A stretch of 58,143 nt of DNA from Cyanobacteria bacterium CG_2015-22_32_23 (GTDB lineage: Bacteria > Cyanobacteriota > Cyanobacteriia > Cyanobacteriales > Cyanobacteriaceae). A program made the translations under genes and the position numbers. Location of the stretch: the NCBI GenBank assembly GCA_009993045.1, contig JAACUG010000087.1, positions 1-58,143 on the forward strand, given 5' to 3'. The notes beneath the pieces are model-generated. The model had not been told where the DNA came from and ran no database searches. It saw nothing but the letters and a program-made list of their open reading frames with translations. This document shows positions 3,506-16,783 of the stretch, piece after piece (position 1 is the stretch's first letter; each line of letters opens with the position of its first letter).

Positions 3506-5204
3506 AATCCATTAAAGCATTATATTTAGGAGATTCTTTTTGATCTAAATATTCTAAACTTCCCCAACTACCGTGTTTACTTGGTTGTCCAATATCAACA
3601 AAGTGCATAAATAAACCTCCTCCAGTTTTTTCCCAGTTATTTAATACCTCTGTATATAAATCATACATTTCTGGTCGTCGATTCAATTCCATAAAAAAGT
3701 TATTTAACTGTTCATTTTCTTGAACTTTGCCTACGGCGACGATATGTTGTCCACCTTCATAAGCAACTAATTGTAAGCCTCTTTCTTGGGCTACTTGACG
3801 ATGATAAGTGAATAAATCGAAAAGATCTGGTAAACTATCCTTTGTTTTGCCTTGAAGTAATTTTCCTGTTTTTAATTGTTCAATTGCTTTATTAAATCCA
3901 CCATCAGATTCATTTAACCATGATTTGACTTTTGATTCATTATCAGAATGACCTAAAGCGCCACTAAAATAACCCGTAATGGCATAAGCATCAATACCAT
4001 GCTGATAACAAGGTTTATTACCTTCTTTCACCCACAAAGGACAATCTAATAAGGGTTTTTCTCGTCCTTTATAAGCAGTTTGAGTAGAAATTACACAAAT
4101 TACTCGATTTTTTTGATCTCCAAATTCTTTTTTCCAAATATCACACATTTGAGCTGTGCGCATTCCATACCACTGCATATAAGCATTACCTTCTTGATTC
4201 CATTTTGCTTTACCTTGTGCTAAAGAGTATTTAGCTTGTTTAAATTGCCAATTCCACACTTCATTAGAATATTCAATATAAATTTTTAACTTAGGATTTA
4301 ATTTTGCTTTGACTAATTGAGCGAATTTTGTCATATATTCATCAGTAGCTTGATGAGGTATGTTAAACCAAACATCTTTATTAAGTTTATTTCCTAAAGC
4401 AATCATCGTTTCTACTGAAGCACCTTTAAGGGCATAGGAAGAAATATTTGGAGTTGGTCTGTCACTCCATTCTATCTGTTCGGAATTGTTGGTTTGCATC
4501 CAATCCATAAAACGAAGGGTAGTAAAAGCCTTAATTTTTTCTAAAAACAGAGGATTAAAAATTTCACCTTGATTAAACAGTTTCTCGTTTTTAGCTTCAA
4601 TAACTTTTATATTACGAATATAATTACCATTATTTTTAGGATCTGTAGCGGTTATAGTAAGGAGAATTCCCCCACCACTACTTGAATCAACTTCGATAAC
4701 ATCTCTTCCTGGTTTAGATTCTGAAGGAATTTTCTTAGCAGCGAATTTATATTCTAATGTTCCTTCTCCGTCATATAAAACTAAATATTTTCCTCCCCTA
4801 AATTTATTTGGTATGTCTCTAAATAACAATGTACTAACACGAGTGTATTCTTGTGGATCTTCAGGCTTTGGTAATGATTTTACCCAACCATTTTCATCTA
4901 AATTTAATAGCTTATTTTCTTCTGTACTCCACTTCCCTTGACAATCTGGTTCTGAATTAAGACATTGAGTAATCCAAGCACGAGAAGTTTTAAAATGGTT
5001 GATAAAAGGAAGTTGAGTTGACCAATCAGCTATACCATTTAAACCAATACCGACATTGGCTTTTTGTGGAGGAAGATTTGACTTATTAGGAACTATTACA
5101 ACAGGGGAAGATTGAACTGCCTCTTCTTTCAAAGATTGACAAGCAGAAATTAATACTGCTAATAAAGACAACAAAGTGATAATTTTAAAATTTTTGATTA
5201 ACAT
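3471..5204 (-). CDS. Lipoprotein with clan GH-A glycoside-hydrolase-like catalytic motifs
   Basis: This 577-residue protein begins with a lipoprotein signal peptide (hydrophobic 8-20, lipobox LISAC with Cys22), so it should be anchored in a membrane facing the periplasm or outside. The sequence EYSNEVWNW gives an Asn314-Glu315 pair typical of the acid/base of clan GH-A TIM barrels, and AYEGGQH puts Glu483 where the nucleophile would be. A beta-rich region (about 110-205) precedes the barrel. Similar proteins are often annotated as cellulose-binding or arabinofuranosidase-like. It overlaps the polymerase gene upstream by 7 bp, which points to translational coupling and a role in trimming, releasing or editing the nascent polysaccharide. 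The substrate is unknown. Confidence 0.72.
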   Translation of the reverse strand: MLIKNFKIITLLSLLAVLISACQSLKEEAVQSSPVVIVPNKSNLPPQKANVGIGLNGIADWSTQLPFINHFKTSRAWITQCLNSEPDCQGKWSTEENKLLNLDENGWVKSLPKPEDPQEYTRVSTLLFRDIPNKFRGGKYLVLYDGEGTLEYKFAAKKIPSESKPGRDVIEVDSSSGGGILLTITATDPKNNGNYIRNIKVIEAKNEKLFNQGEIFNPLFLEKIKAFTTLRFMDWMQTNNSEQIEWSDRPTPNISSYALKGASVETMIALGNKLNKDVWFNIPHQATDEYMTKFAQLVKAKLNPKLKIYIEYSNEVWNWQFKQAKYSLAQGKAKWNQEGNAYMQWYGMRTAQMCDIWKKEFGDQKNRVICVISTQTAYKGREKPLLDCPLWVKEGNKPCYQHGIDAYAITGYFSGALGHSDNESKVKSWLNESDGGFNKAIEQLKTGKLLQGKTKDSLPDLFDLFTYHRQVAQERGLQLVAYEGGQHIVAVGKVQENEQLNNFFMELNRRPEMYDLYTEVLNNWEKTGGGLFMHFVDIGQPSKHGSWGSLEYLDQKESPKYNALMDFIRNHHLSKNN

Positions 5205-6622
5205 TTTTTTGTTATGGATGTTCTCAATGGACTTAATTGTTTAGGTTTTATAGCTAATTTTTTGCGTTTTTTATTTTTAGAAGGAACATTATTAAGTACT
5301 AATCCTGATAATCCACCGCTAATTAAAGGAAAAATAGGGTTAAACATGGCATTAACGAGAGAATCAATGACAAATAAAATAAGAGAAACGCTTAAAACTG
5401 CTGCTGATGCTACCTGTGGATGAAACCAAGTTTTTGCTGGATAACGAAAAACTGCAAAGTAAAATACTGGTAATAATAAAGATGTTATTAGGGTAATTAA
5501 ACCAAATAAACCATTAACTCCGAAAACAATAATCCAGTAACTATCTGTTACAGATTTATCTTCTAAATCTCCTTTCCAATCTGCCGTTAATACTTTATTC
5601 CTTCCCCATCCAGCCCAACCAAATAATATTCTTTCTCTAGCTCTTTCTCCTAATAGTTTTTCATTATCTAATCTAAATTCTAAAGATTGACTTCTTTCTT
5701 CTCCAAAGGAATTATTTGCGAATCGCACTAAATTATCTCCGTTGAAATTCCCCGTAGTAGCGATCGCCAAATAGTAAACAATACCAATCATTAATAAAAT
5801 TAAAGGTAAATTTGATCGTAACCATTTAGCCGAAGCTAAAACCATTAAACCAGCAAATAGCAATACATAAGCCCCAGTGGATTTGATCAAAATAAAAGTA
5901 ACAAGTAAAATCACTACTACCCATTCCATGGGAATTCCCCAGATTTTCTTGATCACTTTTCCCTGCCATAACCAAATAGCAAGAAGGGTGGCCGTCATCA
6001 TAAATAACCCTAACATTAAGCCGTGATTCATGAAAACTTGTGGTCTCCATCCCCCTAAACGCATAGTTTGTCCAAAAGAATGGGGAAAATAGCCATATAC
6101 CATTGTATGGATTTGAGGACTCATTCTTATTTCATAAAGACATAAAGGAACATAAATTAATCCCCCTTTAATCGTATTAATGGCTAACTCTTTTAATCCT
6201 GATAAATTATTGAGATATAATCGCCCTAAAAAATAAGGCATTCCCCATTGAAAACTTTGACTAATAGACTGATTAATACCATCATATAAAGCGAAAATGA
6301 TATTAAGGTCAGAAAAATTACTGAGGCTCGAAAAAAAGGGACTAATACCAAATAAAATGATAGGGAGATCAAACCAACTAAACTTAAATTTTCTAAATAT
6401 TTGGGAATCGTAAATAATAATAGCGATAAAAATACCATAACAAGTTGCAATCATTCCTTCATAATCAGGAATTAAAGGTAAAGCAAAACCTGCTTTTCTG
6501 GGCAGAAATAATAAACCGCCTAAAAAACTAACGATTACGGCTTTTCTAGGAGAAAATTTTTTAAATAAATATATAGTTATCGGCAGCCATAAAATCATGG
6601 CTAATTGTGCTTGAAAACTCAT
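5198..6622 (-). CDS. O-antigen ligase/Wzy-like polysaccharide polymerase
   Basis: This 474-residue integral membrane protein has about ten to twelve hydrophobic segments and a large loop (about residues 290-350, with FGEERSQSLEFRLDNEK and GWAGWGRNK) before the last helices. This layout is characteristic of the O-antigen ligase/polymerase superfamily. In a cluster with Wzx flippases it most likely joins lipid-linked repeat units at the periplasmic face. Relatives without a neighbouring polymerase can act as ligases, so this remains a family-level call. It follows the two sulfotransferases on the same strand after a 205-bp gap and overlaps the start of the GH-like lipoprotein gene by 7 bp. The C-terminal tail is basic and cytoplasmic. 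Confidence 0.78.
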   Translation of the reverse strand: MSFQAQLAMILWLPITIYLFKKFSPRKAVIVSFLGGLLFLPRKAGFALPLIPDYEGMIATCYGIFIAIIIYDSQIFRKFKFSWFDLPIILFGISPFFSSLSNFSDLNIIFALYDGINQSISQSFQWGMPYFLGRLYLNNLSGLKELAINTIKGGLIYVPLCLYEIRMSPQIHTMVYGYFPHSFGQTMRLGGWRPQVFMNHGLMLGLFMMTATLLAIWLWQGKVIKKIWGIPMEWVVVILLVTFILIKSTGAYVLLFAGLMVLASAKWLRSNLPLILLMIGIVYYLAIATTGNFNGDNLVRFANNSFGEERSQSLEFRLDNEKLLGERARERILFGWAGWGRNKVLTADWKGDLEDKSVTDSYWIIVFGVNGLFGLITLITSLLLPVFYFAVFRYPAKTWFHPQVASAAVLSVSLILFVIDSLVNAMFNPIFPLISGGLSGLVLNNVPSKNKKRKKLAIKPKQLSPLRTSITKKC

Positions 6623-6827
6623 TATTGATCCATTAATTATTTGAGATGAATTGATGATATAATATTCTTAAATCATTTGTCAGAATTTTTACTTCCCTAA
6701 AGGCAATTTTGAGGGAAATTAAATGATTATTTTGTTATCACTCAAAGAGGATTACTATATTAACAATATTAGTTATTTTTAAGATCATTTTGTCCTTTTA
6801 ACTCATAGGTTTTGTGATCTTGACATT

Positions 6828-7784
6828 CTACTTATCCATTAAATCATAACCAAAATCCCTGAGATTGATGTTAATTAATTCACTGGTTTTTTGATTACTT
6901 TCAACAAACATATTTTCAGTATATTCTTGAATAAAATCTTTAATCTGAGATTTTGCCTTATTTTGCAGTTCTTCAGGTAATGTATTATCAAGTAAACGCA
7001 AGATTTTCCAAATAATGATCCATCTCCAAGAATTTGAGGAAGAAATCAATCTCTTATCTTGAAAAAGAATAAAATTATTAATTTTTCTATGAATAGCTAA
7101 TGTCGCCGCTTTATAATTAACATTAGTCTCTTTTGATGGGATGTTATCAAAACTTTGATTTTCAATACCTACAAACTGACATATTTTTTGTAAATAGAGA
7201 TTTTTATCCTTTTTTAATAACTCAAAAGGCAATACTAAAACTTGATTTTCGCCAAAAAGATTATAGTAATAATTAATTAAATAATGATATTCTAAACAAT
7301 ACAATCTCAAGAGTGGATATAAGCCTGATTTAATATTTTTAGTACTAATTAATTGTTCTATAGAGTGTCTTCCTCCTTTCCGAATATAATGTCCATAAGC
7401 AGAAAAAATCATCGACTTTTGTTCTCTAATAACGATTAAAATTTTAGCTTTAGGGAAAACTTGATGAAGTCTTTGCGCCACTTCTTTTCCCCAATAGCCA
7501 CTTTGATCCATAAAATTACAAGAAAGCATCTCTTGAGATAATACGGTACATAAATGTTTTTTTTCCCCTTCTTTTAAACCATTTTCAAAAGCGGCATAAG
7601 CATTTTCAGCAGAGAAAGAAAAACTGTTTACTGTGATAAATTGATCTACAGCAATACTATCAGACCAATGTCCCCTCCAAGGAGAAAAAAAGCCCATTTT
7701 CTCGTCTTTAAAAATTCCTTGTTGAAGCCATGTAGAAGCTGTTTTAGGATAACCAATATGAATTAGTAATTGATTGTTCAACAT
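6828..7784 (-). CDS. PAPS-dependent sulfotransferase (first of a tandem pair)
   Basis: This 318-residue protein starts with LIHIGYPKTASTWLQ, the 5'-phosphosulfate-binding loop of sulfotransferases (Lys14, Ser17, Thr18). A second block, AKILIVIREQKSMIFSAY, supplies the Arg120 and Ser128 expected to bind the 3'-phosphate of PAPS. It should transfer sulfate from PAPS to a hydroxyl of a sugar in the nascent polysaccharide. It lies 11 bp downstream of a paralogue (7796-8719), and both end with an ESNQKTS segment, so the pair arose by duplication. No signal peptide is seen, so it acts in the cytoplasm. Lipid or small-molecule acceptors cannot be excluded, but the EPS context favours a glycan. Confidence 0.85.
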   Translation of the reverse strand: MLNNQLLIHIGYPKTASTWLQQGIFKDEKMGFFSPWRGHWSDSIAVDQFITVNSFSFSAENAYAAFENGLKEGEKKHLCTVLSQEMLSCNFMDQSGYWGKEVAQRLHQVFPKAKILIVIREQKSMIFSAYGHYIRKGGRHSIEQLISTKNIKSGLYPLLRLYCLEYHYLINYYYNLFGENQVLVLPFELLKKDKNLYLQKICQFVGIENQSFDNIPSKETNVNYKAATLAIHRKINNFILFQDKRLISSSNSWRWIIIWKILRLLDNTLPEELQNKAKSQIKDFIQEYTENMFVESNQKTSELININLRDFGYDLMDK

Positions 7785-7795
7785 TTACAACTTAA

Positions 7796-8719
7796 TTATT
7801 CCATTTGATAATTATACAGAGAAAGATCCATGTTAATTATATTACTGGTTTTTTGATTGCTTTCTATATAGTAATTATGTATTTTTTCAGCGATTATTTC
7901 TTTCATATGATTTTCCACTTTTTGAATTAATGCTTCTGGTATTGTGTTCTCAACAACTTGATTTAATCGATAAAAAAAAGAATTATTTATTTTTTGATAT
8001 AAAGATGAATTTACCCTACAAATTCTAGGGGCAAAAAAATTAGTCCATCGTTTAAAATAAAGAGATAAATATGAATAACTTTTATTAACTTGTGAAAAAT
8101 TCATTTTAGTATCAATGTTTGTTTTTGTAAAATTAGATATTTTTTCAAGAAAAAGTACCTTATTATCTTTTAGCATTTCATAGGGTAAAACTAAAACCTG
8201 ATCTTTCCCAAATAAACTTTGATAGTGATTAATTAACCAGTGATATTGAAGATAATCAAAGTTAAAAAATGGTTCAAAACTAGGAAATTCTTTTTGTATT
8301 TGCTCTAAATATTCATTAATTCCTACCGTTAAATCACTATTTAATCTATGTTTATAAATAGACCAAATCATATCTAATTGATTTCTAATTATAATTAATA
8401 TTTTCGACTGTGGAAACAAGGAATATAATTTATTTGCCATATCATAATTGTTATAACCACCTGAAGTTATACTCCCCGATAATCTTTCTTCACTTATCAC
8501 AGAAACTAAGTTTTCTTTCGCCGCTTTTTCTATTTTTTCCTCAAAAAATAAACGAGTTTTATTAATATCAAAAAGAAAAGGATTTACTAAAAGTAATTTT
8601 TCATAATAATCTTGACGACACCAAGGAGAAATAAACCCGAAATTTTCTTGATTAAAAACTTGTTTTTGTAAAAAAGTACTCCCTGTTTTATGGTAACCAA
8701 TATGAATCAATAAGGACAT
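7796..8719 (-). CDS. PAPS-dependent sulfotransferase (second of a tandem pair)
   Basis: This 307-residue protein has the PAPS-binding loop LIHIGYHKTGSTFLQ near its N-terminus (Lys11, Ser14, Thr15) and SKILIIIRNQLDMIWS with Arg112 and Ser120 for the 3'-phosphate. It is clearly related to the adjacent sulfotransferase at 6828-7784: same order of motifs, and the same ESNQKTS sequence close to the C-terminus. The middle (about 120-230) differs strongly, which suggests another acceptor position or sugar. It probably sulfates the lipid-linked repeat unit in the cytoplasm before export. It is on the same strand as the GT4 gene 8857-10044, 137 bp downstream of it. Confidence 0.85.
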   Translation of the reverse strand: MSLLIHIGYHKTGSTFLQKQVFNQENFGFISPWCRQDYYEKLLLVNPFLFDINKTRLFFEEKIEKAAKENLVSVISEERLSGSITSGGYNNYDMANKLYSLFPQSKILIIIRNQLDMIWSIYKHRLNSDLTVGINEYLEQIQKEFPSFEPFFNFDYLQYHWLINHYQSLFGKDQVLVLPYEMLKDNKVLFLEKISNFTKTNIDTKMNFSQVNKSYSYLSLYFKRWTNFFAPRICRVNSSLYQKINNSFFYRLNQVVENTIPEALIQKVENHMKEIIAEKIHNYYIESNQKTSNIINMDLSLYNYQME

Positions 8720-8856
8720 AAATAAAAATTTAGGTTATTCCAGTCTAAACTATAGTTAATTATTCCATAAAAATCATTATACTGTTCCAAAAAATAAAGA
8801 TTGTTATGTAACTATTAAAGCTATTTATAGAAAGACATAATTTTTAAAAATGTTGA

Positions 8857-10044
8857 TTAAATATAATAATTTGACGTTAAATTATGTTGTAATAACCAAT
8901 CAATATCTTCCTGAGTATTTGATAACCAATGATCAATTAATTCTCCAAAGTTACAAGGAATTTCCAAATTTAAAAGTGTTTCAGCAGAATTTAAAGATAG
9001 TTTATGATATAAATCATCATTAGAAAGAACTTTTTTAATACTATTTGCTAAAGCTAGAGAATCACCTGAAGGAAAAATCATAGCATTAACTTCATTAATT
9101 AACTTATTAACAAATACGGGATGATTAGAAGCAACAATGGGTGTTTTACAAGTTAATGCTTCATTAATAACTTTAGGAAAACCTTCAGCACATTCTATTC
9201 TACTCGGTACAATTACTAAATCAGAATTTCTCATCAAAGACATTACTTGACTATGATTTATTAAGCCTAAAAAATTTATTTGATTGTCAATTTTTAAATT
9301 TTTAGCAAGATTAGAAAATTTCTCAATATCACCATTACCAGCCATATTTAAGGTTAAATATAATCCTTGTTTATGTAAGATATTTATTGCCTTAATTACA
9401 TCTGTCACTCCTTTTTGTTCTATAATTGAACCACAGTATAGTATAGATATATTTTCATTATCTTTCGGTTTATTTTTAGGAATAAAGTCTTCTGAAGTAT
9501 TATGATTAGGCCAATCCCAAGGAATAATTTTATTCGGATTAACTCCTATATATTGCAATGTATAAGACGCATAAATACCATGATTAGCAACCCAATTAAT
9601 AGATGAATTATTCAACTGTTTAGCAAGAAAATAGTTTTTAATTTTTTGTTTAATGGTTTTATTTTCTATATAGTCAGAAAATGTTGTTAAAGTCGATATT
9701 TTGTATTTAATTGCTAATGATAAAATTTCTGGTGATGGAAATCTTAAAATCAATTTATCAGGTTTTATTTGTTGTATATATTGACTAATATCTTGTTTAA
9801 TTTTTTGCTGATCATAATTATTTTTTAGACCTAATCCGATAGCTCTTAATTTAGGTTTTAATAATTCACTATAACTATCTTTTGAAGATATACATATTGT
9901 AGTTACTTCTTCTAAGGTTTCTGCAAGTTTAGCTACATAATCAACGGAATATTTTTGATAACCGTAGATTTCCTCCTCCCCGTTAGCGAATCTTTGATAG
10001 GCTTCTCGATAATCTCCACCGTATTGAATGATTAATAAACGCAT
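8857..10044 (-). CDS. Family 4 glycosyltransferase
   Basis: This 395-residue GT-B protein has an N-terminal acceptor domain (1-about 190) and a C-terminal nucleotide-sugar domain. The latter carries ISILYCGSIIEQKGVTDVIK and the donor-binding segment AEGFPKVINEALTCKTPIVA (about residues 285-305), typical of GT4. It should add a sugar to the growing repeat unit with retention of configuration. It lies 34 bp downstream of the flippase gene 10079-11422. The N-terminus carries an unusual acidic NGEEEIYGYQKY stretch. Donor and linkage are unknown. Confidence 0.87.
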   Translation of the reverse strand: MRLLIIQYGGDYREAYQRFANGEEEIYGYQKYSVDYVAKLAETLEEVTTICISSKDSYSELLKPKLRAIGLGLKNNYDQQKIKQDISQYIQQIKPDKLILRFPSPEILSLAIKYKISTLTTFSDYIENKTIKQKIKNYFLAKQLNNSSINWVANHGIYASYTLQYIGVNPNKIIPWDWPNHNTSEDFIPKNKPKDNENISILYCGSIIEQKGVTDVIKAINILHKQGLYLTLNMAGNGDIEKFSNLAKNLKIDNQINFLGLINHSQVMSLMRNSDLVIVPSRIECAEGFPKVINEALTCKTPIVASNHPVFVNKLINEVNAMIFPSGDSLALANSIKKVLSNDDLYHKLSLNSAETLLNLEIPCNFGELIDHWLSNTQEDIDWLLQHNLTSNYYI

Positions 10045-10078: not shown

Positions 10079-11422
10079 TTATAATGATAAATAAGCTAAA
10101 GGAAAACCTGCACCTAAATAGTATCTAATTAAGATGATTAAACTTATTATAGTTATTAACAATAAAGTTGCTAAAATATCTTGTTTAATGGTCATTAATC
10201 CTTCTTTCCATAAACCATATTGTACAGCTATATAAAAAGGAAAATCGTTAAAGGCAATTACTAAAATTGCTCCTAATATGCCCATAATATTCGACATTAA
10301 AGGCAGTAGAATAATCATATAGATAAATTTTAACAAATATCCATAAGCACCATACATGGGTTTTCCGATTCCCATTTGTACACTTCTCATGGTGACAGCA
10401 AGTAAATTAGGCCAAATTCCTAATGCTAAAATTGGTAACATCCAAGAACCTTGTTTATAACGATCATCGTATAAAGTTAGAATTAATAAATCTCCAAAAC
10501 AACTTAAAAAAGTTACAAATACAATACCAATAGCTAATAAAAACTTTCTTTTACTTAAAATCTTTTCTCTTAAAATTTTTCTAGGTAAGTCACTGCATTT
10601 AGAAATAAGAGGAAAAACTACTGTACCATTGATTTTATCAATTATCTGTAAAGAAATATCCGCAAAAGTAAAAGCGATGGTATAAATTCCTAATATTTCG
10701 ATGGAGAATAATCTACCTAAAATTAATCTATCGGATTGCATTGCTAAAAAAGTTAACATTGTGGAAATAAAAATCCACTTACCAAAAGAAAATAATTCTT
10801 CTAATGATTTTTTATCCCATGTAAAAGTATTTTTAACTTCTTTAATTAATTGATGACTAATAATAGTACTCAATAGACCTGATATAATCGTAGCAATAGC
10901 TAAAGATAAAATATTACGATTAAACCATACGAGAATAATGGTAATAATCAAAGAAAAAACTTGTATTCCTACATTAAATAATGTTTTTTTTTCTACACTG
11001 ATATTTCTATCAAGTAAGGGTAAAGCCGTTGACTGAAAACCATTGACAATGGAATTTAAACCTAGAATCGGAATTAACCATTTTAATTCGGGAGTATCAT
11101 AAAAAATCGATAGAGGATAAGCAATTAATAAACAAGCAAACCAGATAAAGAAACCTCTTATTACCTGTAAAGTCCATGCTGTATTATAAAAAATTGGCTC
11201 ATTTCCACGTTTATTCTGAATAATACTAGGTGCGATTCCTACGTCAGAAAATAGATTTAATCCTATAATAAAAGTATTGACTAAAGACATTAAGCCAAAA
11301 ACTTCTGGCACTAATAAACGAGTGAGTATTAAATTACTTCCCAAACGTAAAACTTGACTACCCCCATAACCAATAAAAGTCCAAATTGTGCCACGAATTG
11401 CTAATTGTTTGAGGGATGACAT
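10079..11422 (-). CDS. Wzx-type polysaccharide flippase, copy 1
   Basis: This 447-residue membrane protein of the MOP superfamily has about 12-14 hydrophobic segments. Its N-terminus (SLKQLAIRGTIWTFIGYGGS) is typical of the WzxC/lipopolysaccharide-exporter branch. It should move undecaprenyl-linked repeat units across the cytoplasmic membrane. A second flippase gene lies at 12670-14007. The first 52 codons of the two genes are identical at DNA level, while the rest has diverged to an estimated half identical residues by eye. It sits between two GT4 genes, 12 bp downstream of 11435-12532, in one transcription direction. Confidence 0.87.
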   Translation of the reverse strand: MSSLKQLAIRGTIWTFIGYGGSQVLRLGSNLILTRLLVPEVFGLMSLVNTFIIGLNLFSDVGIAPSIIQNKRGNEPIFYNTAWTLQVIRGFFIWFACLLIAYPLSIFYDTPELKWLIPILGLNSIVNGFQSTALPLLDRNISVEKKTLFNVGIQVFSLIITIILVWFNRNILSLAIATIISGLLSTIISHQLIKEVKNTFTWDKKSLEELFSFGKWIFISTMLTFLAMQSDRLILGRLFSIEILGIYTIAFTFADISLQIIDKINGTVVFPLISKCSDLPRKILREKILSKRKFLLAIGIVFVTFLSCFGDLLILTLYDDRYKQGSWMLPILALGIWPNLLAVTMRSVQMGIGKPMYGAYGYLLKFIYMIILLPLMSNIMGILGAILVIAFNDFPFYIAVQYGLWKEGLMTIKQDILATLLLITIISLIILIRYYLGAGFPLAYLSL

Positions 11423-11428
11423 TTCTAA
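11265..11428. repeat. 164-bp perfect direct repeat, copy A
   Basis: These bases are identical, letter by letter, to 13850-14013, an offset of 2585 bp. The copy covers the first 52 codons of the flippase gene 10079-11422 plus the 6 bp before its start codon. The match ends with a mismatch at 11264 against 13849 and at 11429 against 14014. Confidence 0.95.
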
Positions 11429-11434
11429 TTTAAA

Positions 11435-12532
11435 TTATAATTCTCTTTTTTTCGTTCTTTCTATAGCTCTATATAATGCCTGTTCAAATAATTGAGTTGC
11501 ATCATCCCAAGTATAGCCCGTCGCTGTACTATAAGCTGCATCGGACATTGATCGCCATTCTAAATTAGACATTTGAGCAATTTTAATGATTGCTTTTGCC
11601 ATATCTTCTGGATTTTCAGGTTTAACTAAAATACCGCCACCTTTTGCTAATAATTCAGGTGCCGCACCTGCCGGAGTGCCAATAACAGGAGTACGACAAG
11701 CCATTGCTTCTAAAATAGGTAATCCAAATCCTTCCGCACGACTACCAAAAAGCCACCCATCACACTGACTATAAATATTCTTAATCTGATCTTGAAGTGG
11801 GTTTGTCCAATAAGTTGTATTTTCAGGTAATGGTAAGTCTTTAGTCGGACTTGTTGTCCCGAAAGCCACCAAGTGTAAATTCGGTATTTCTTGTCGTGCT
11901 AATGCTAAAGCCTTGAAACTAAGAGCACAGCCTTTCCAATAAACAGGGGAATACAACAAACCAACAGTAGGTATTGCCTGTTTTGTGCGGACGGGAGCAT
12001 TGAACTGTTGCGTATCAACACTATTAAAAATAAGAGAAACATTTTCATCTTCATATTCTGTTTTGGCTAAATCCACTAACCATTGAGAAATAGTAATTTT
12101 ATGAAAAGGTAATTTCCATGTTGCTTTAACTCTTTCTTTGGGGAGATAATCAAATATTTCATGATGTTGAATAAAATAAGCCTTAGCCCCTTTTTTTTGA
12201 GATAAATTAGCAACCCATTCCGCCGTTTCCCACCATGTAGCAATTACCACATCACCATCTGGTACATCATCATCAGTAACAGGGCGACAGGTTTCTAAAA
12301 TTTTGTGAGTGACACTTAAATCATCAAAGTAAGAATATTCGGATTTATTTTCAAAAAGTTTAATTTTTCCTTTAATTAATGATTTGATTTGTTGTTTTAA
12401 ATTAGGTTTTTTTTTCGGTTGAGAAATGACAAAAACTTCATGACCTAATTTCTGGAGGCGATCAGCATAAATGGAGATAACACGATTACCACCAGATAAA
12501 TCCGCATAGGGTAAAATAAAAGTAATTTTCAT
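11435..12532 (-). CDS. Family 4 glycosyltransferase between two flippase genes
   Basis: This 365-residue GT-B enzyme starts with MKITFILPYADLSGGNRVIS, a common GT4 N-terminus with a glycine-rich turn. Its donor site carries SRAEGFGLPILEAMACRTPV (about residues 265-285) followed by GTPAGAAPELL, both diagnostic of GT4. It probably adds a sugar to the polysaccharide repeat unit. It is the only gene wholly inside the segment bounded by the two 164-bp direct repeats, so it would be lost if those repeats recombined. Many genes of this kind are annotated as mannosyltransferases, but the donor cannot be read here. Confidence 0.88.
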   Translation of the reverse strand: MKITFILPYADLSGGNRVISIYADRLQKLGHEVFVISQPKKKPNLKQQIKSLIKGKIKLFENKSEYSYFDDLSVTHKILETCRPVTDDDVPDGDVVIATWWETAEWVANLSQKKGAKAYFIQHHEIFDYLPKERVKATWKLPFHKITISQWLVDLAKTEYEDENVSLIFNSVDTQQFNAPVRTKQAIPTVGLLYSPVYWKGCALSFKALALARQEIPNLHLVAFGTTSPTKDLPLPENTTYWTNPLQDQIKNIYSQCDGWLFGSRAEGFGLPILEAMACRTPVIGTPAGAAPELLAKGGGILVKPENPEDMAKAIIKIAQMSNLEWRSMSDAAYSTATGYTWDDATQLFEQALYRAIERTKKREL

Positions 12533-12669
12533 ATATACAATATATTTTGTTTGGGTACTTATGATTAAATATTAATATTAGAGCATAAATAAATTCAAAT
12601 AGAAAAAATAGCTTATTTATTTTCTTCCCATAAAGACCAAATTTAGATTTTCAAAAAAATATATAAATT

Positions 12670-14007
12670 TTAGATAAAATTTTCCAAAGAATAACCAAAT
12701 CCCAAAAAGTATCGAATACTGGTTAAAATTATTGAAAATAAGATTAATAAACAAGTCATTTGTAAGTCTTGAGTAACTACTGTCATTTGTTCTTTCCAAA
12801 GTCCATAACTAACTGATAAATAAAAAGGTAAATCATTAAATCCAACAACAATAACTCCTCCTAAAATACCAAAACTATTAATACTCCAAGGTAAAATTAA
12901 TATCATATAAATAAATTTGATAGCATTACCTAATGATACAAATTTTGGATTACCCAAAGCGAACAAGATTGGATCTATTGTCATAGATAATATTAGAGGC
13001 CATAAACCTAAAGTTAGAATAGGCAACATCCAACTTGCTTTTTTATACCTTTGATCATATAAAGTTTCGATAATTATGTCTCCAAAAGAAAATAAAACAG
13101 AAATTATTAAAACTGAAAGTATCAATAAAATAATACGTTTCTTCAATATTTTAATTTTTAATTCATGTCTTGGTAAATGTATTTTTTGAGAAAAAATGGG
13201 AAAGATGATTTTGTTACTAATTGTTCCGATGATTTGTCGAGGAATATCTGCAAAGGTAAAGGCTATGGTATAAACTCCTAATATTTCTAACGGAAATAAT
13301 TTACCAAGAATTAATCTATCTGTCTGAGATGCTAAAAAAGTCATCATCGTAGAAATAAATATCCAACGTCCAAAAGAGACTAATTCTTTGATACAATCTC
13401 GATTCCAAATAAAACGGTGATGGATTGTTGATATAGAATGACTCCAGTAGAGTTTAACAAGATTGGAGACTAAACTACCAATTATTAAAGCCCAAATTGT
13501 TGGCTTGTAAAATGCCCAAATTAGCATCATACCCAAAGATATTATTTGAGTGACTAATTCAATGAGAGTAAGTTGTCCTACTTTTACTTGACGATTTAAA
13601 ATTGCTAATGAAGTAGAATCAAATCCTAAAAGAATAGTATTTAAACCCACAATAGGTATTAACCATTTTAAGTTTGGTTGTTCATAAAATTGAGCGACTG
13701 GAAAAGCAATGATGAGACAACCAATCCATAAGCCAAATCCTCTGATAACTTGTAAAGTCCATGCCGTATTTAGAAAAATAGGATCTTCTCCTCTAGGACT
13801 TCTGACAATACTAGGATTAATACCAATATCTGAGAATAGATTTAATCCCATAATAAAAGTATTGACTAAAGACATTAAGCCAAAAACTTCTGGCACTAAT
13901 AAACGAGTGAGTATTAAATTACTTCCCAAACGTAAAACTTGACTACCCCCATAACCAATAAAAGTCCAAATTGTGCCACGAATTGCTAATTGTTTGAGGG
14001 ATGACAT
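12670..14007 (-). CDS. Wzx-type polysaccharide flippase, copy 2
   Basis: This 445-residue MOP-superfamily protein has about 12-14 membrane segments and is a paralogue of the flippase at 10079-11422. Both share the N-terminus up to NTFI, then differ at one residue (Met for Ile) and go on diverging. Two Wzx proteins in one EPS cluster may serve two repeat units, or one may be a recent capture. It is the first gene of the long minus-strand run, so a promoter should lie in 14014-14113, where I see no clear sigma-70 match. A sequence ending in TTAGAA precedes the ATG instead of a good Shine-Dalgarno. Confidence 0.87.
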   Translation of the reverse strand: MSSLKQLAIRGTIWTFIGYGGSQVLRLGSNLILTRLLVPEVFGLMSLVNTFIMGLNLFSDIGINPSIVRSPRGEDPIFLNTAWTLQVIRGFGLWIGCLIIAFPVAQFYEQPNLKWLIPIVGLNTILLGFDSTSLAILNRQVKVGQLTLIELVTQIISLGMMLIWAFYKPTIWALIIGSLVSNLVKLYWSHSISTIHHRFIWNRDCIKELVSFGRWIFISTMMTFLASQTDRLILGKLFPLEILGVYTIAFTFADIPRQIIGTISNKIIFPIFSQKIHLPRHELKIKILKKRIILLILSVLIISVLFSFGDIIIETLYDQRYKKASWMLPILTLGLWPLILSMTIDPILFALGNPKFVSLGNAIKFIYMILILPWSINSFGILGGVIVVGFNDLPFYLSVSYGLWKEQMTVVTQDLQMTCLLILFSIILTSIRYFLGFGYSLENFI

Positions 14008-14013
14008 TTCTAA
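13850..14013. repeat. 164-bp perfect direct repeat, copy B
   Basis: This is the partner of 11265-11428 and covers the 5' end of the flippase gene 12670-14007. The two copies have the same orientation and reading frame, so recombination between them would delete 2585 bp and leave one intact flippase gene with the body of copy 1. Confidence 0.95.
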
Positions 14014-14113: not shown

Positions 14114-14512
14114 TTAATCTTTAGGTTCAAATTTGAGGGCAACAGAATTCATACAATAACGTTTTCCTGTGGGTTTTGGTCCATCGTCAAAAACATGACC
14201 TAAATGAGCGTCACAAGCACCACATAAGACTTCTACTCGTTTCATAAAGAGGCTAATATCAGTTTTATAGGTGACGCTATCTTCTCTGACGGGTTGCCAA
14301 AAACTGGGCCAGCCTGTGCCTGAATCATATTTAGTGTCAGCAGTAAATAACTCATTGTCACAGCAAACGCATCTATAAATACCATCGGCTTTATTTTTGT
14401 AATATGCTCCCGTAAAAGCTCTTTCTGTACCATGTTTTCTAGTAACTTGGAATTGCTCAGGGGTAAGAATTTCTTTCCATTGTGCTTCAGTTTTTGTGAC
14501 TTTTTCTACCAT
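14114..14512 (-). CDS. msrB: Peptide-methionine (R)-S-oxide reductase MsrB
   Basis: This 132-residue enzyme reduces methionine-R-sulfoxide in proteins, using a catalytic cysteine and usually thioredoxin. The signature GTGWPSF (residues 65-71), the HLGHVFDDGP block (103-112) and RYCMNSVAL with catalytic Cys120 are all present. Two CxxC pairs (Cys48/Cys51 and Cys97/Cys100) form the structural zinc site found in one class of MsrB. The length matches a stand-alone single-domain MsrB. It stands alone after the EPS cluster. The ATG at 14510-14512 gives the usual N-terminus. Confidence 0.95.
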   Translation of the reverse strand: MVEKVTKTEAQWKEILTPEQFQVTRKHGTERAFTGAYYKNKADGIYRCVCCDNELFTADTKYDSGTGWPSFWQPVREDSVTYKTDISLFMKRVEVLCGACDAHLGHVFDDGPKPTGKRYCMNSVALKFEPKD

Positions 14513-14619
14513 GATATTGTGATAATTTATGAGATAAAATAACTTTTATATTTTACCTTAATTGATCAAAGGTTAATAGGATTAAATTAATTACTAGATG
14601 GTTTTTGAAATAAAAATTA

Positions 14620-15084
14620 CTATAAAAATTTAGTCAAATCAAAATTACTAAAAGTAGGAGATTTTTGACTTTTTCCTTGATTCAAAATTAATAATATTCT
14701 CTCACTATAATCTACTGCGCCTTTTAGTTGATCTTGTAGTTTCATTAATCCACCATTAGCATATTCTTCAAAAATCATTACTCTTTCTTCTTCCGCAATC
14801 ATATCATAAGCAGAAATGATGTCTGGATTATGAGTCTCGGTAATAGCTAAAAGTTTAAATAAAAAATCATAACCACGAGTACTAAAAACATCTAAACTGA
14901 TGGGAGATGGTTCTTTCGCAATAGCGTTTAATGGTAATCTAATTTTATTATTTTTACCTAAAGCAGCCGCAAAGGCCATAATATCAGCATAAGTTGCAAA
15001 AACTCCTTGACTATTTTGGTTATTTAAGACTAAACTTTGGACTAAATTAGCTTTATCTTGAGCAATTTTAATTCTAATAGCCAT
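14620..15084 (-). CDS. Protein resembling DNA phosphorothioation-associated protein 4
   Basis: This 154-residue soluble protein has the pattern I recall for the family called dnd system-associated protein 4: an N-terminal RIKIAQDKANLVQSLV, then FATYADIMAFAAALG, and near the end EEYANGGLMKLQDQL. The biochemical role of the family is not established. It is linked by name to the Dnd DNA phosphorothioation/restriction system, yet cyanobacterial members are often found alone. No dndA-E or dptFGH gene is in this window. It is divergent from a HicA-like/HTH pair, so this short zone may be a defence remnant. The family call is from memory of the motif pattern. Confidence 0.6.
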   Translation of the reverse strand: MAIRIKIAQDKANLVQSLVLNNQNSQGVFATYADIMAFAAALGKNNKIRLPLNAIAKEPSPISLDVFSTRGYDFLFKLLAITETHNPDIISAYDMIAEEERVMIFEEYANGGLMKLQDQLKGAVDYSERILLILNQGKSQKSPTFSNFDLTKFL

Positions 15085-15098
15085 GATATTAATAGATA

Positions 15099-15115
15099 AT
15101 TAGGGGTTGCCTAAT
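15099..15115. promoter_or_regulatory. Perfect 6-bp inverted repeat upstream of 14620-15084
   Basis: ATTAGG-GGTTG-CCTAAT is a perfect palindrome with a 5-nt spacer. It ends 15 bp before the start codon of the minus-strand gene. It could be an operator or a hairpin in the leader. No function is proved. Confidence 0.3.
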
Positions 15116-15334
15116 AAGTGGAATAGGGAGATAGGAGAAATACTTATAAATCAAGCTCTCAATCTTAGTATTAATAATAATTACAATAACAAGTTTTTAG
15201 ACAATGGTATCAAAAATGTTGAGTTTTTGACTAAAAATTGCTAAAACGGCTACGAAGTATATTACTATTTGATGACTCAATCCCTTGCTATGGTATTGAA
15301 TATTTTTAAGGTATTTTTCGTTTTAAAATAAAAA

Positions 15335-15352
15335 GTTGTCAATCAACAACTA
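15335..15352. promoter_or_regulatory. Inverted repeat upstream of the toxin-antitoxin-like pair
   Basis: AGTTGT-CAATCA-ACAACT is a perfect 6-bp inverted repeat ending 10 bp before the ATG at 15363. Its position fits an autoregulatory operator for the HTH protein of the pair, or a leader hairpin near the ribosome-binding site. The 15085-15362 gap otherwise shows no gene. Confidence 0.35.
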
Positions 15353-15362
15353 TATAATTAAA

Positions 15363-15623
15363 ATGAGTCAAAAACATCCAAACAAGGAAATAAGGGAGAT
15401 AATTGAATATGGCGTCAAAAAAGGATGGATAGTTAAAGAATCTAATGGTCATGCTTGGGGTATTTTATATTGTCCTTATAACAACAAAAACTGTCGTGCA
15501 GGAAAACATTGTAAAACAAGTATTTGGAGTACTCCGACAGATCCTCAATACTTTGCGAAACATTTAAAAAGAATTATAGATAAATGTAATTATACGGAGG
15601 AGAATACAGATGAATTATTATGA
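15363..15623 (+). CDS. HicA-like small protein, probable toxin of a TA pair
   Basis: From the ATG at 15363 the product has 86 residues; an upstream in-frame TTG at 15336 would put the inverted repeat inside the gene and is rejected. The order KHPNKEIREIIEYGVKKGW, SNGHAWGILYCP, SIWSTP and KHLKRIIDKC resembles HicA-like double-stranded-RNA-binding-fold proteins, in which a histidine (here His30) is important for mRNA cleavage. Four cysteines (37, 44, 50, 75) are visible; a metal site is possible but speculative. The gene overlaps the next one (15610-16131) by 14 bp, as in many toxin-antitoxin operons. Toxic activity is inferred, not shown. Confidence 0.6.
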   Translation: MSQKHPNKEIREIIEYGVKKGWIVKESNGHAWGILYCPYNNKNCRAGKHCKTSIWSTPTDPQYFAKHLKRIIDKCNYTEENTDELL

Positions 15624-16131
15624 TTTTAGTTTAATTTTTGACTTTAAAGATCAAACAGATCCTGAGATTTACTTAGATTCATTATATGAAGCAGGATGTG
15701 GAGATGCACTAATAGGTATAGCAGAGAAAGGATCGATGGCCTTAGATTTCATGAGAAAATCAGATTCTGCCTATCAAGGTGTTTATAGTGCTATTCAACA
15801 AGTTAAATCAGTGATACCCAATGCCGTTTTAATAAAAGTTTCCCCTGATATAGTAGGAGTTTTAGAATTATCGGAAATATTTGAATGTACAAAACAAAAT
15901 ATACAAAAATATGTCAATAAAGAGAGTTTTCCTAAAGCATTTTATAAAGGCTCTCAAGCTATTTGGCACTTAGATGAAGTACTAGAATGGTTTTTAATCA
16001 ATAAGGAAGAAAAAGTAGATACCAGTTTATTAGACATAGCTCGATTAGCAAGAAGTATAAATTTAAGTTTAGAAACTAAAAAAGCTAATGTTGAAATATT
16101 TAAACAAGCTCAAGAATTAGTAGCAATTTAA
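15610..16131 (+). CDS. HTH DNA-binding protein, probable antitoxin partner
   Basis: This 173-residue protein has two parts. Residues 1-80 (YDFSLIFDFKD, LYEAGCGDALIGI, GSMALDFMRKSDSAYQGVYSAI) look like a HicB-type alpha/beta domain. Residues 82-130 (VLELSEIFECTKQNIQKYVN, then a basic stretch and AIWHLDEVLEWFL) look like a MerR/AlpA-type helix-turn-helix with a wing. The remaining C-terminus is helical. Coupled by a 14-bp overlap to the HicA-like gene, it probably neutralises that protein and represses the operon. The toxin-first order is usual for hicAB. A plain transcription regulator is the alternative. Confidence 0.6.
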   Translation: MNYYDFSLIFDFKDQTDPEIYLDSLYEAGCGDALIGIAEKGSMALDFMRKSDSAYQGVYSAIQQVKSVIPNAVLIKVSPDIVGVLELSEIFECTKQNIQKYVNKESFPKAFYKGSQAIWHLDEVLEWFLINKEEKVDTSLLDIARLARSINLSLETKKANVEIFKQAQELVAI

Positions 16132-16198
16132 GAGATTAACGAAAAAATGTAACCTAAATTTTTTTATTGCCTAAATGAACAAAATAAATTATTAATTG

Positions 16199-16783
16199 AT
16201 GAAAATTGTTACCGTTATTTTAGCGGGGGGAAAAAGTTCACGCATGGGAGAAGATAAGAGTTTATTAGAGATCAATGGCGAAGTTTTTTTAAGGAATATT
16301 TATCATATTGCTCAACAATGTACAGAAGAAGTTTATGTTATTTGTCCTAAACCTAAAAAATATATTTCTATTTTACCATTTTGTAATTTTATTCCTGAAT
16401 CGCAATTTTTTCAAGGGCCATTAATGGCTTTTCATGAGGCTTTAAATTATGTCCAAAGTGATTGGGTTTTATTATTAGCTTGTGATTTACCTTTTTTAAC
16501 CGTAATTGAGCTTAAATATTGGATTAATTCTTTATGTAATCTCCCAGAAAATATCATGGCTTTTTTGCCTAAAAATGAGAAAGGTTGGGATTGTTTATGT
16601 GGTTTTTATCGCCCTAGTTGTCGAGAATCTTTACAAAAGTATTTAAGTCAAGGAAATCGATCTTTTCAACAATGGTTAAATCAAGAAAAAGTAGCAGAAA
16701 TATTAGTAAAGAATAGAGAAATATTATTTAATTGTAATACTCCTCAAGATTATGAACTGTTAAAAAATATTACCCAGAAATAG
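16199..16783 (+). CDS. mobA: Molybdenum cofactor guanylyltransferase
   Basis: This nucleotidyltransferase attaches GMP to molybdopterin, forming the guanine dinucleotide cofactor. The N-terminal signature LAGGKSSRMGEDK (residues 8-20) binds GTP, and LACDLPFL (about residues 96-103) contains the metal-binding aspartate. The ATG at 16199 is chosen; an upstream TTG at 16196 adds only one residue. The product of 194 residues has the normal length. Other molybdopterin genes are not in the window. Some homologues are annotated only as NTP transferases, but the combined motifs fit MobA. Confidence 0.87.
   Translation: MKIVTVILAGGKSSRMGEDKSLLEINGEVFLRNIYHIAQQCTEEVYVICPKPKKYISILPFCNFIPESQFFQGPLMAFHEALNYVQSDWVLLLACDLPFLTVIELKYWINSLCNLPENIMAFLPKNEKGWDCLCGFYRPSCRESLQKYLSQGNRSFQQWLNQEKVAEILVKNREILFNCNTPQDYELLKNITQK

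What the first reader, a model, noticed from the sequence alone, without database searches (positions are those of the whole stretch)
11265..14013. Two diverged flippase genes share a perfect 164-bp 5' segment
Bases 11265-11428 equal 13850-14013 without a single difference, while the rest of the two wzx genes has drifted far apart. A perfect stretch inside diverged paralogues indicates recent gene conversion or a recombination-mediated insertion. The repeats are direct and in frame, so recombination would remove 2585 bp (one glycosyltransferase and one flippase body) and leave a working flippase. That is a simple one-way switch of polysaccharide structure between cells, with the shared start acting as a universal cap onto which different flippase bodies can be joined.
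Basis: partly seen in the sequence, partly recalled or inferred. Interest (0 to 1): 0.7.

Follow-up and report, generated by a model that had tools for sequence, protein, structure and literature searches.

The report
Flippase gene wearing its neighbour's start
In what looks like a cyanobacterial sugar-coat gene cluster, one of two neighbouring transporter genes has most likely had its first 164 bases overwritten with a copy of the other's; this is a neat but ordinary case of gene conversion, and nothing seen here shows that it works as a switch.

Summary
Bases 11265-11428 equal 13850-14013, a maximal 164-bp match running from 6 nt before both start codons into codon 53 of two tandem flippases (A 10079-11422, B 12670-14007) that are otherwise about 60% identical. 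Conservation does not explain it: among 3655 pairs of 86 family sequences, only A/B has a start at least 95% identical on bodies below 80%.

Relatives suggest the history. G001 and G008 carry a wzxA-type gene without wzxB's glycosyltransferase; G007 and G010 carry wzxB-glycosyltransferase. B's body groups with G007/G010, but its start is A-like: 25 against 3 diagnostic sites, versus 66 against 85 beyond codon 60. B is a chimera, most likely an A-to-B gene-conversion tract; the start's tree alone does not settle direction.

No call showed deletion or cap reuse; the best long cap match elsewhere is 84%. Switch and "universal cap" are unsupported. Known kind, close to Helicobacter bab chimeras.

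The parts
11265..11428 (-). 164-bp exact repeat, copy 1: 6 nt leader plus first 158 coding bases of wzxA (likely donor)
   Evidence: maximal exact match; 83% and 82% nt to wzxA-type genes in G001 and G008 over the first 53 codons
13850..14013 (-). 164-bp exact repeat, copy 2: 6 nt leader plus first 158 coding bases of wzxB (likely recipient tract)
   Evidence: 82% nt to the wzxA-type genes of G001/G008 but 64% to the wzxB-type genes of G007/G010; 25 vs 3 diagnostic sites A-like
10079..11422 (-). wzxA, flippase of Polysacc_synt_3 family, 447 aa
   Evidence: PF13440 1.3e-50; 67% and 74% aa to G001 and G008
11435..12532 (-). glycosyltransferase (Glycos_transf_1 domain), 365 aa, partner gene of wzxB
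   Evidence: PF00534 5e-23; orthologue next to wzxB in G007 and G010 at 58-59%; in 13 of 79 named loci a match above 42% identity lies on the same strand downstream of wzx
12670..14007 (-). wzxB, flippase of Polysacc_synt_3 family, 445 aa, chimeric: A-type start on a B-type body
   Evidence: PF13440 1.6e-52; tree of codons 61-340 groups it with G007/G010, support 100/99.6
11429..13849 (.). segment between the two repeats; with one repeat it is the 2585 bp that recombination would remove
   Evidence: script deletion gives 2585 bp loss and a gene identical to wzxA; inference as to biology
5198..10044 (-). further cluster genes: wzy-like polymerase (5198-6622), two sulfotransferases (6828-7784, 7796-8719), another glycosyltransferase (8857-10044)
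   Evidence: the Wzy_C match is below Pfam's cut-off; the protein aligns at 65-67% aa to genes near wzxA in G001/G008 and 61-62% to genes near wzxB in G007/G010

Best explanation
Two tandem, long-diverged flippase genes of one polysaccharide cluster underwent a recent non-reciprocal homologous recombination (gene conversion). The first 164 bp of wzxA were copied over the start of wzxB. The tract runs to the edge of homology just before the start codon and stops somewhere within codons 53-68. Shown: exact identity, mosaic ancestry of wzxB, absence of such a shared start in the other pairs compared. Inferred: that RecA-type recombination between resident copies did it, and that it happened after the wzxB-glycosyltransferase module and wzxA had come to lie side by side. 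Both genes stay full-length; the exchanged part is helix 1 and most of helix 2 of the modelled transporter. The repeat leaves the module deletable by a single crossover, which I take to be a by-product rather than an evolved switch.
For: Exact 164 bp, with 0 of 24 four-fold sites changed against 33 of 56 in the rest. A/B residual z 7.2, first of 3655 pairs; the next two are B/G001 and B/G008 (z 3.4, 3.3), as expected if B wears an A-type start. Diagnostic sites, B like A-type:B-type = 25:3 in codons 1-53 and 66:85 after codon 60, Fisher p 6e-6; sites where B matches neither type were left out (2 and 30). Maximum chi-square 19.7, reached by 0 of 10,000 permutations, break between coding bases 198 and 205. 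Tree of codons 61-340: B with G007/G010 100/99.6, and holding B with A, G001, G008 is rejected (p-AU 0.004); in the start tree A, B, G001, G008 are one side of a branch, support 84/91.6. Gene order: wzxB-GT-wzy in G007 and G010; wzxA-type gene without the GT in G001 and G008. Model of B: helices 4-36 and 39-60, mean pLDDT 85.
Against: The start is short: a tree holding A and B with G007/G010 is not rejected for it (p-AU 0.28), nor one holding B alone with them (p-AU 0.11). Direction therefore rests on site counts and identities, and G007/G010 are long-branched there. The C-terminal quarter of B is ambiguous by sites (26 A-like vs 22 B-like), though its tree puts B with G007/G010 at 86.8/73. 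The upstream edge includes 6 nt outside the reading frame, which conversion alone need not copy. Only one draft assembly (142 contigs) of the species was available.
Confidence: 0.75

Rival explanations
1. Insertion with duplication: the wzxB body and glycosyltransferase entered an A-type locus by recombination within the wzxA start, so that the start was duplicated on both sides (integration of a circle or of a foreign segment).
For: The repeat unit is start + wzxB body + glycosyltransferase; removing it gives wzxA alone, resembling G001/G008. wzxB and GT occur together elsewhere (G007/G010; 13 of 79 loci).
Against: The incoming DNA would already need a glycosyltransferase ending a few bases before a wzx start, i.e. 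a tandem of its own or an illegitimate joint at that spot. No intermediate was seen. The non-coding flanks of G001/G008 show no similarity visible by eye with which to test it.
Confidence: 0.17
2. An active one-way or heritable switch: cells delete the 2585 bp by recombination between the repeats and change polysaccharide structure.
For: Geometry: direct, in frame, 164 bp, product is an intact wzxA. Homologous recombination of this kind between direct repeats is general knowledge (recalled).
Against: No variant could be looked for in a single assembly, and none was seen. The design was not found again: GT orthologue in 3 of 15 family genomes, only the own one beside two wzx; no shared start in the other pairs; no close cap elsewhere. 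A one-way loss cannot be maintained as a switch (inference). Only the flippase and glycosyltransferase ORFs of 100 aa or more lie between the repeats.
Confidence: 0.05
3. Assembly artefact, in which an assembler copied or mis-joined the start.
For: Draft of 142 contigs; 164 bp is about the length of a short read (recalled); connectivity around a repeat of that size can be wrong.
Against: Each copy has its own flanks on both sides and lies inside one 58-kb contig without N. Mis-joining needs two real copies anyway, and smoothing should not turn a start about 64% identical, as in G007/G010, into an exact one (inference).
Confidence: 0.03

Closest known systems
Helicobacter pylori bab adhesin chimeras (babBA, babAB) by gene conversion
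   Same: Paralogues with different bodies share a start because a short 5' tract was copied; [quoted passage not shown]
   Different: bab genes sit at separate loci and the copied 5' part of babB carries CT repeats giving phase variation (same passages); here the genes are tandem and the proteins are flippases, and I know of no phase-variable repeat in the tract.
Concerted evolution by gene conversion in prokaryotes, incl. cyanobacterial psbA/psbD
   Same: Copying between resident paralogues (PMC6053082, passages read).
   Different: There paralogues stay alike over long times; here one short tract in genes otherwise about 60% identical.
Sulfated polysaccharide cluster xss (synechan) of Synechocystis PCC 6803
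   Same: Wzx/Wzy-type cluster with two sulfotransferase genes and glycosyltransferases (PMC8205485, passages read).
   Different: xss lists one wzx gene (xssH); the window has two in tandem. The polysaccharide made here is unknown.

Membership tests
Intragenomic gene conversion tract | Paralogues far more alike in one tract than flanking sequence and family constraint predict, silent sites included | tested here: met
   0 of 24 vs 33 of 56 four-fold sites differ; 1 of 3655 pairs
Intragenomic gene conversion tract | Non-reciprocal: recipient tract carries donor ancestry, flanks keep their own | tested here: met
   25:3 vs 66:85 diagnostic sites; but the start tree alone does not reject the other grouping, p-AU 0.28
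Intragenomic gene conversion tract | Donor and recipient were both resident when it happened | not testable with these tools
   needs close strains with and without the tract
Wzx/PST flippase (Polysacc_synt_3) | Family profile over the body and multi-helix membrane fold | tested here: met
   PF13440 at about 1e-50 for both; all-helical model, mean pLDDT 85, for B only; transport itself not tested
Deletion-based phase-variable system | More than one arrangement seen in a population or in related strains | not testable with these tools
   one assembly of the species only
Deletion-based phase-variable system | Dedicated recombinase in the element, or the same design repeated in relatives | tested here: not met
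   ORFs of 100 aa or more between the repeats are wzxB and the glycosyltransferase only; among 8 other same-genome pairs 7 share no start and 1 is a plain duplication. A recombinase elsewhere in the genome was not looked for

The most novel reading that the evidence does not exclude
The wzxB-glycosyltransferase unit is an exchangeable specificity module: it enters and leaves A-type polysaccharide loci by homologous recombination in the conserved first two helices of wzx, so the flippase start serves as a landing site and the cell can lose or regain a sugar addition together with its matching flippase.
Probability: 0.1. Interest if true: 0.55.

Novelty: new member of a known kind. Interest (0 to 1): 0.28.

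Why it matters
It is a clean and probably directional example of a flippase acquiring another flippase's first two helices without loss of reading frame, and of two locus types merged in one polysaccharide cluster. If the module proved to move by recombination in the flippase start, it would suggest how sugar-adding enzymes and their matching flippases travel together. As it stands it is a modest piece of genome evolution.

Tried and rejected
Purifying selection on the start was rejected: the first 53 codons are conserved, yet in 7 of 8 other same-genome pairs they are only 64-71% alike, and A/B is the one outlier of its kind among 3655 pairs. Recent whole-gene duplication was rejected for A/B, since the bodies have different nearest relatives; it does fit the G177 tandem, 89-94% over the larger segments. 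A reusable cap was rejected: outside the window's genome the best match of 100 bases or more is 84% (G001); 40 of 388 genomes match at all, own included, and three matches of about 30 bases at 88-93% are too short to count as a cap. That call scored two candidates per genome and reported no match in G005, G007 and G010, which one search had matched with a 264-base query, so its misses are not proof of absence.

Start trees holding A+B, or B alone, with G007/G010 were not rejected (p-AU 0.28; 0.11). The promoter scan gave fewer sites than shuffles and says nothing. Upstream flanks of wzxA in G001/G008 showed no similarity by eye to either copy's flank. Paper searches, listings and abstract starts only: wzx with gene conversion listed 4 papers, none on this; five related terms, four required, listed 7; 'two wzx genes' listed 1; repeat-deletion terms listed 1, on rice. 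led to the four papers from which passages were read.

Correction to the notebook: entries 2 and 3 say 14 of 79 loci have the glycosyltransferase with wzx, entry 2 'directly downstream'. One search shows 14 with a match above 42%, of which 13 lie on the same strand downstream, 8 of these within about 350 bp; in L130 it is upstream on the other strand.
Full report
OBSERVATION. Both genes read on the minus strand. The shared stretch begins 6 nt before the two ATGs and ends at coding base 158; after one mismatch and 14 matches the genes diverge. From codon 61 to the end the two genes are about 60% identical in DNA. In codons 1-53, 0 of 24 shared four-fold codons differ, against 33 of 56 from codon 61 on. 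With 0 differences in 164 sites, the 95% upper limit on divergence is about 1.8% (own arithmetic). The repeat was found only at these two places in the window's own genome, a 3.27-Mb draft of 142 contigs in which the window is one whole contig. The window holds no N.

WHAT THE GENES ARE. Both are Wzx-type flippases by profile (PF13440 at 1.3e-50 and 1.6e-52), separated by a glycosyltransferase (PF00534), in a cluster with two sulfotransferases, a further glycosyltransferase and a Wzy-like protein whose own Pfam match lies below the cut-off; hexapeptide transferases and a family 2 glycosyltransferase follow. The 25 best-matching named loci carry cyanobacterial titles; the species itself is named by no tool. 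An AlphaFold2 model of wzxB from 32 sequences (mean pLDDT 85) puts residues 4-36 and 39-60 in the first two helices, so the shared part is helix 1 and most of helix 2.

IS IT CONSTRAINT? No. The start of the family is conserved, but not to this degree. I aligned 86 sequences: A, B, four G genomes, and the wzx hits of all 79 named loci, one locus giving two. Of 3655 pairs none was skipped, and A/B is the only one with a start at or above 95% and a body below 80%; its residual is z 7.2. Five pairs have starts of 91-92%, but on bodies 80-82% alike. An earlier run with 42 of the 79 loci, 1326 pairs, gave z 6.9. Eight further same-genome pairs were compared: the four other two-copy genomes and four pairs of loci with the same genome title. 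Seven have starts 64-71% identical; the eighth (G177, Symploca sp. SIO2C1) is a tandem 89-94% alike over the larger segments, a plain duplication. Among 291 genomes of the order, 83 (own included) have the family at E 1e-60 and five have two copies, own included; at most five candidates per genome were scored.

WHERE DID THE START COME FROM? In G007 and G010 (same family, another genus) the order is wzxB-type gene, glycosyltransferase orthologue (58-59% aa), wzy. In G001 (same genus) and G008 (same family) there is a wzxA-type gene (67% and 74% aa), with wzy next or after one gene. The glycosyltransferase was found at E 1e-60 or better in 3 of 15 genomes of the family: own, G007 and G010. In the 79 named loci a match above 42% to the same glycosyltransferase lies downstream on the same strand in 13, and in 11 of these 13 the wzx is closer to B than to A by rounded identity; the loci were confirmed with B as query, which favours B. 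So the window appears to join two locus types.

B's body (codons 61-340) groups with G007/G010 (support 100/99.6), and holding B with A, G001 and G008 is rejected (p-AU 0.004). Its start is 82% identical to G001 and G008 but 64% to G007 and G010. At sites where G001=G008 differ from G007=G010, B follows the A-type at 25 and the B-type at 3 in codons 1-53, and at 66 and 85 beyond codon 60 (Fisher p 6e-6); 2 and 30 sites where B matches neither were left out. A maximum chi-square break lies between coding bases 198 and 205, not reached in 10,000 permutations. Second and third in the residual ranking are B/G001 and B/G008, which is what an A-type start on a B-type body predicts. Against this, the start tree, though it groups A, B, G001 and G008 at 84/91.6, does not reject A+B held with G007/G010 (p-AU 0.28) or B alone held with them (p-AU 0.11). 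B's C-terminal quarter is undecided by sites (26:22), its tree leaning to G007/G010 (86.8/73).

MECHANISM. The simplest account is non-reciprocal homologous recombination from wzxA to the tandem wzxB, ending upstream where homology ends and downstream between codons 53 and 68. That the event was between resident copies is inferred. The alternative, that the wzxB-glycosyltransferase unit was inserted into a wzxA start and duplicated it, fits the geometry, since deleting one 2585-bp period gives a gene identical to wzxA. It requires incoming DNA that already joined a glycosyltransferase end to a wzx start. In the stretches of G001-G004 around their closest msrB (20 kb each, 10.3 kb for G003) this polysaccharide cluster is absent, so its position beside msrB is not shared by these four and gives no empty-site control for the module.

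THE SWITCH. The geometry of a deletion is real. Its use is not shown: only one assembly of the species could be examined, no other genome in these searches was seen to have the design, and a deletion without a way back is loss rather than switching. The 'universal cap' is not borne out: 40 of 388 genomes (own included) match the cap at E 0.001 or better, and outside the own genome the best matches of 100 bases or more are 84% (G001) and 82% (G008), in the wzxA-type genes; three matches of about 30 bases reach 88-93%; two candidates per genome were scored. A first search of 60 relatives gave 12 matching genomes including own, best elsewhere 81% over 258 bp.

KNOWN KIND. [quoted passage not shown] Gene conversion between paralogues is well documented in prokaryotes, including cyanobacterial psbA and psbD (PMC6053082, passages). 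For cyanobacteria, several homologues of most polysaccharide assembly proteins are reported, put down to duplication or transfer (PMC4594306, passages). I found no paper on conversion between wzx genes (listings and abstract starts only; most subscription journals are not in that library).

VERDICT. Real, well supported as recombination, probably directional, and of modest interest: a new member of a known kind.

Noticed in passing
L047:4900-5638 (G005:C90): A decayed flippase locus: only the first 96 codons of a wzx of this family remain, then a 96-aa remnant of wzy, between ribonucleotide reductase and a Proton_antipo_M/Ndh2_N gene.
   Followed up: partly
L071:6001-9010 (Symploca sp. SIO2C1; G177:C61): Two flippases of the same family in tandem, about 410 bp apart and 89-94% identical over the larger segments: a recent whole-gene duplication, the second copy running to the contig end.
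   Followed up: partly
window 6828-8719: Two adjacent sulfotransferase-domain genes in the cluster, suggesting a sulfated polysaccharide as in the xss cluster of Synechocystis (PMC8205485, passages).
   Followed up: partly
window 14114-16783: msrB, a 154-aa gene and a MobA-like gene lie together here and in G004; in G001 the last two sit about 7 kb from msrB, so the junction of the polysaccharide cluster with msrB is not shared by these relatives.
   Followed up: partly
window 15363-16131: An 86-aa ORF with no Pfam match overlaps the start of a 173-aa ORF, also without a match; the arrangement looks like a two-gene pair of unknown role.
   Followed up: no
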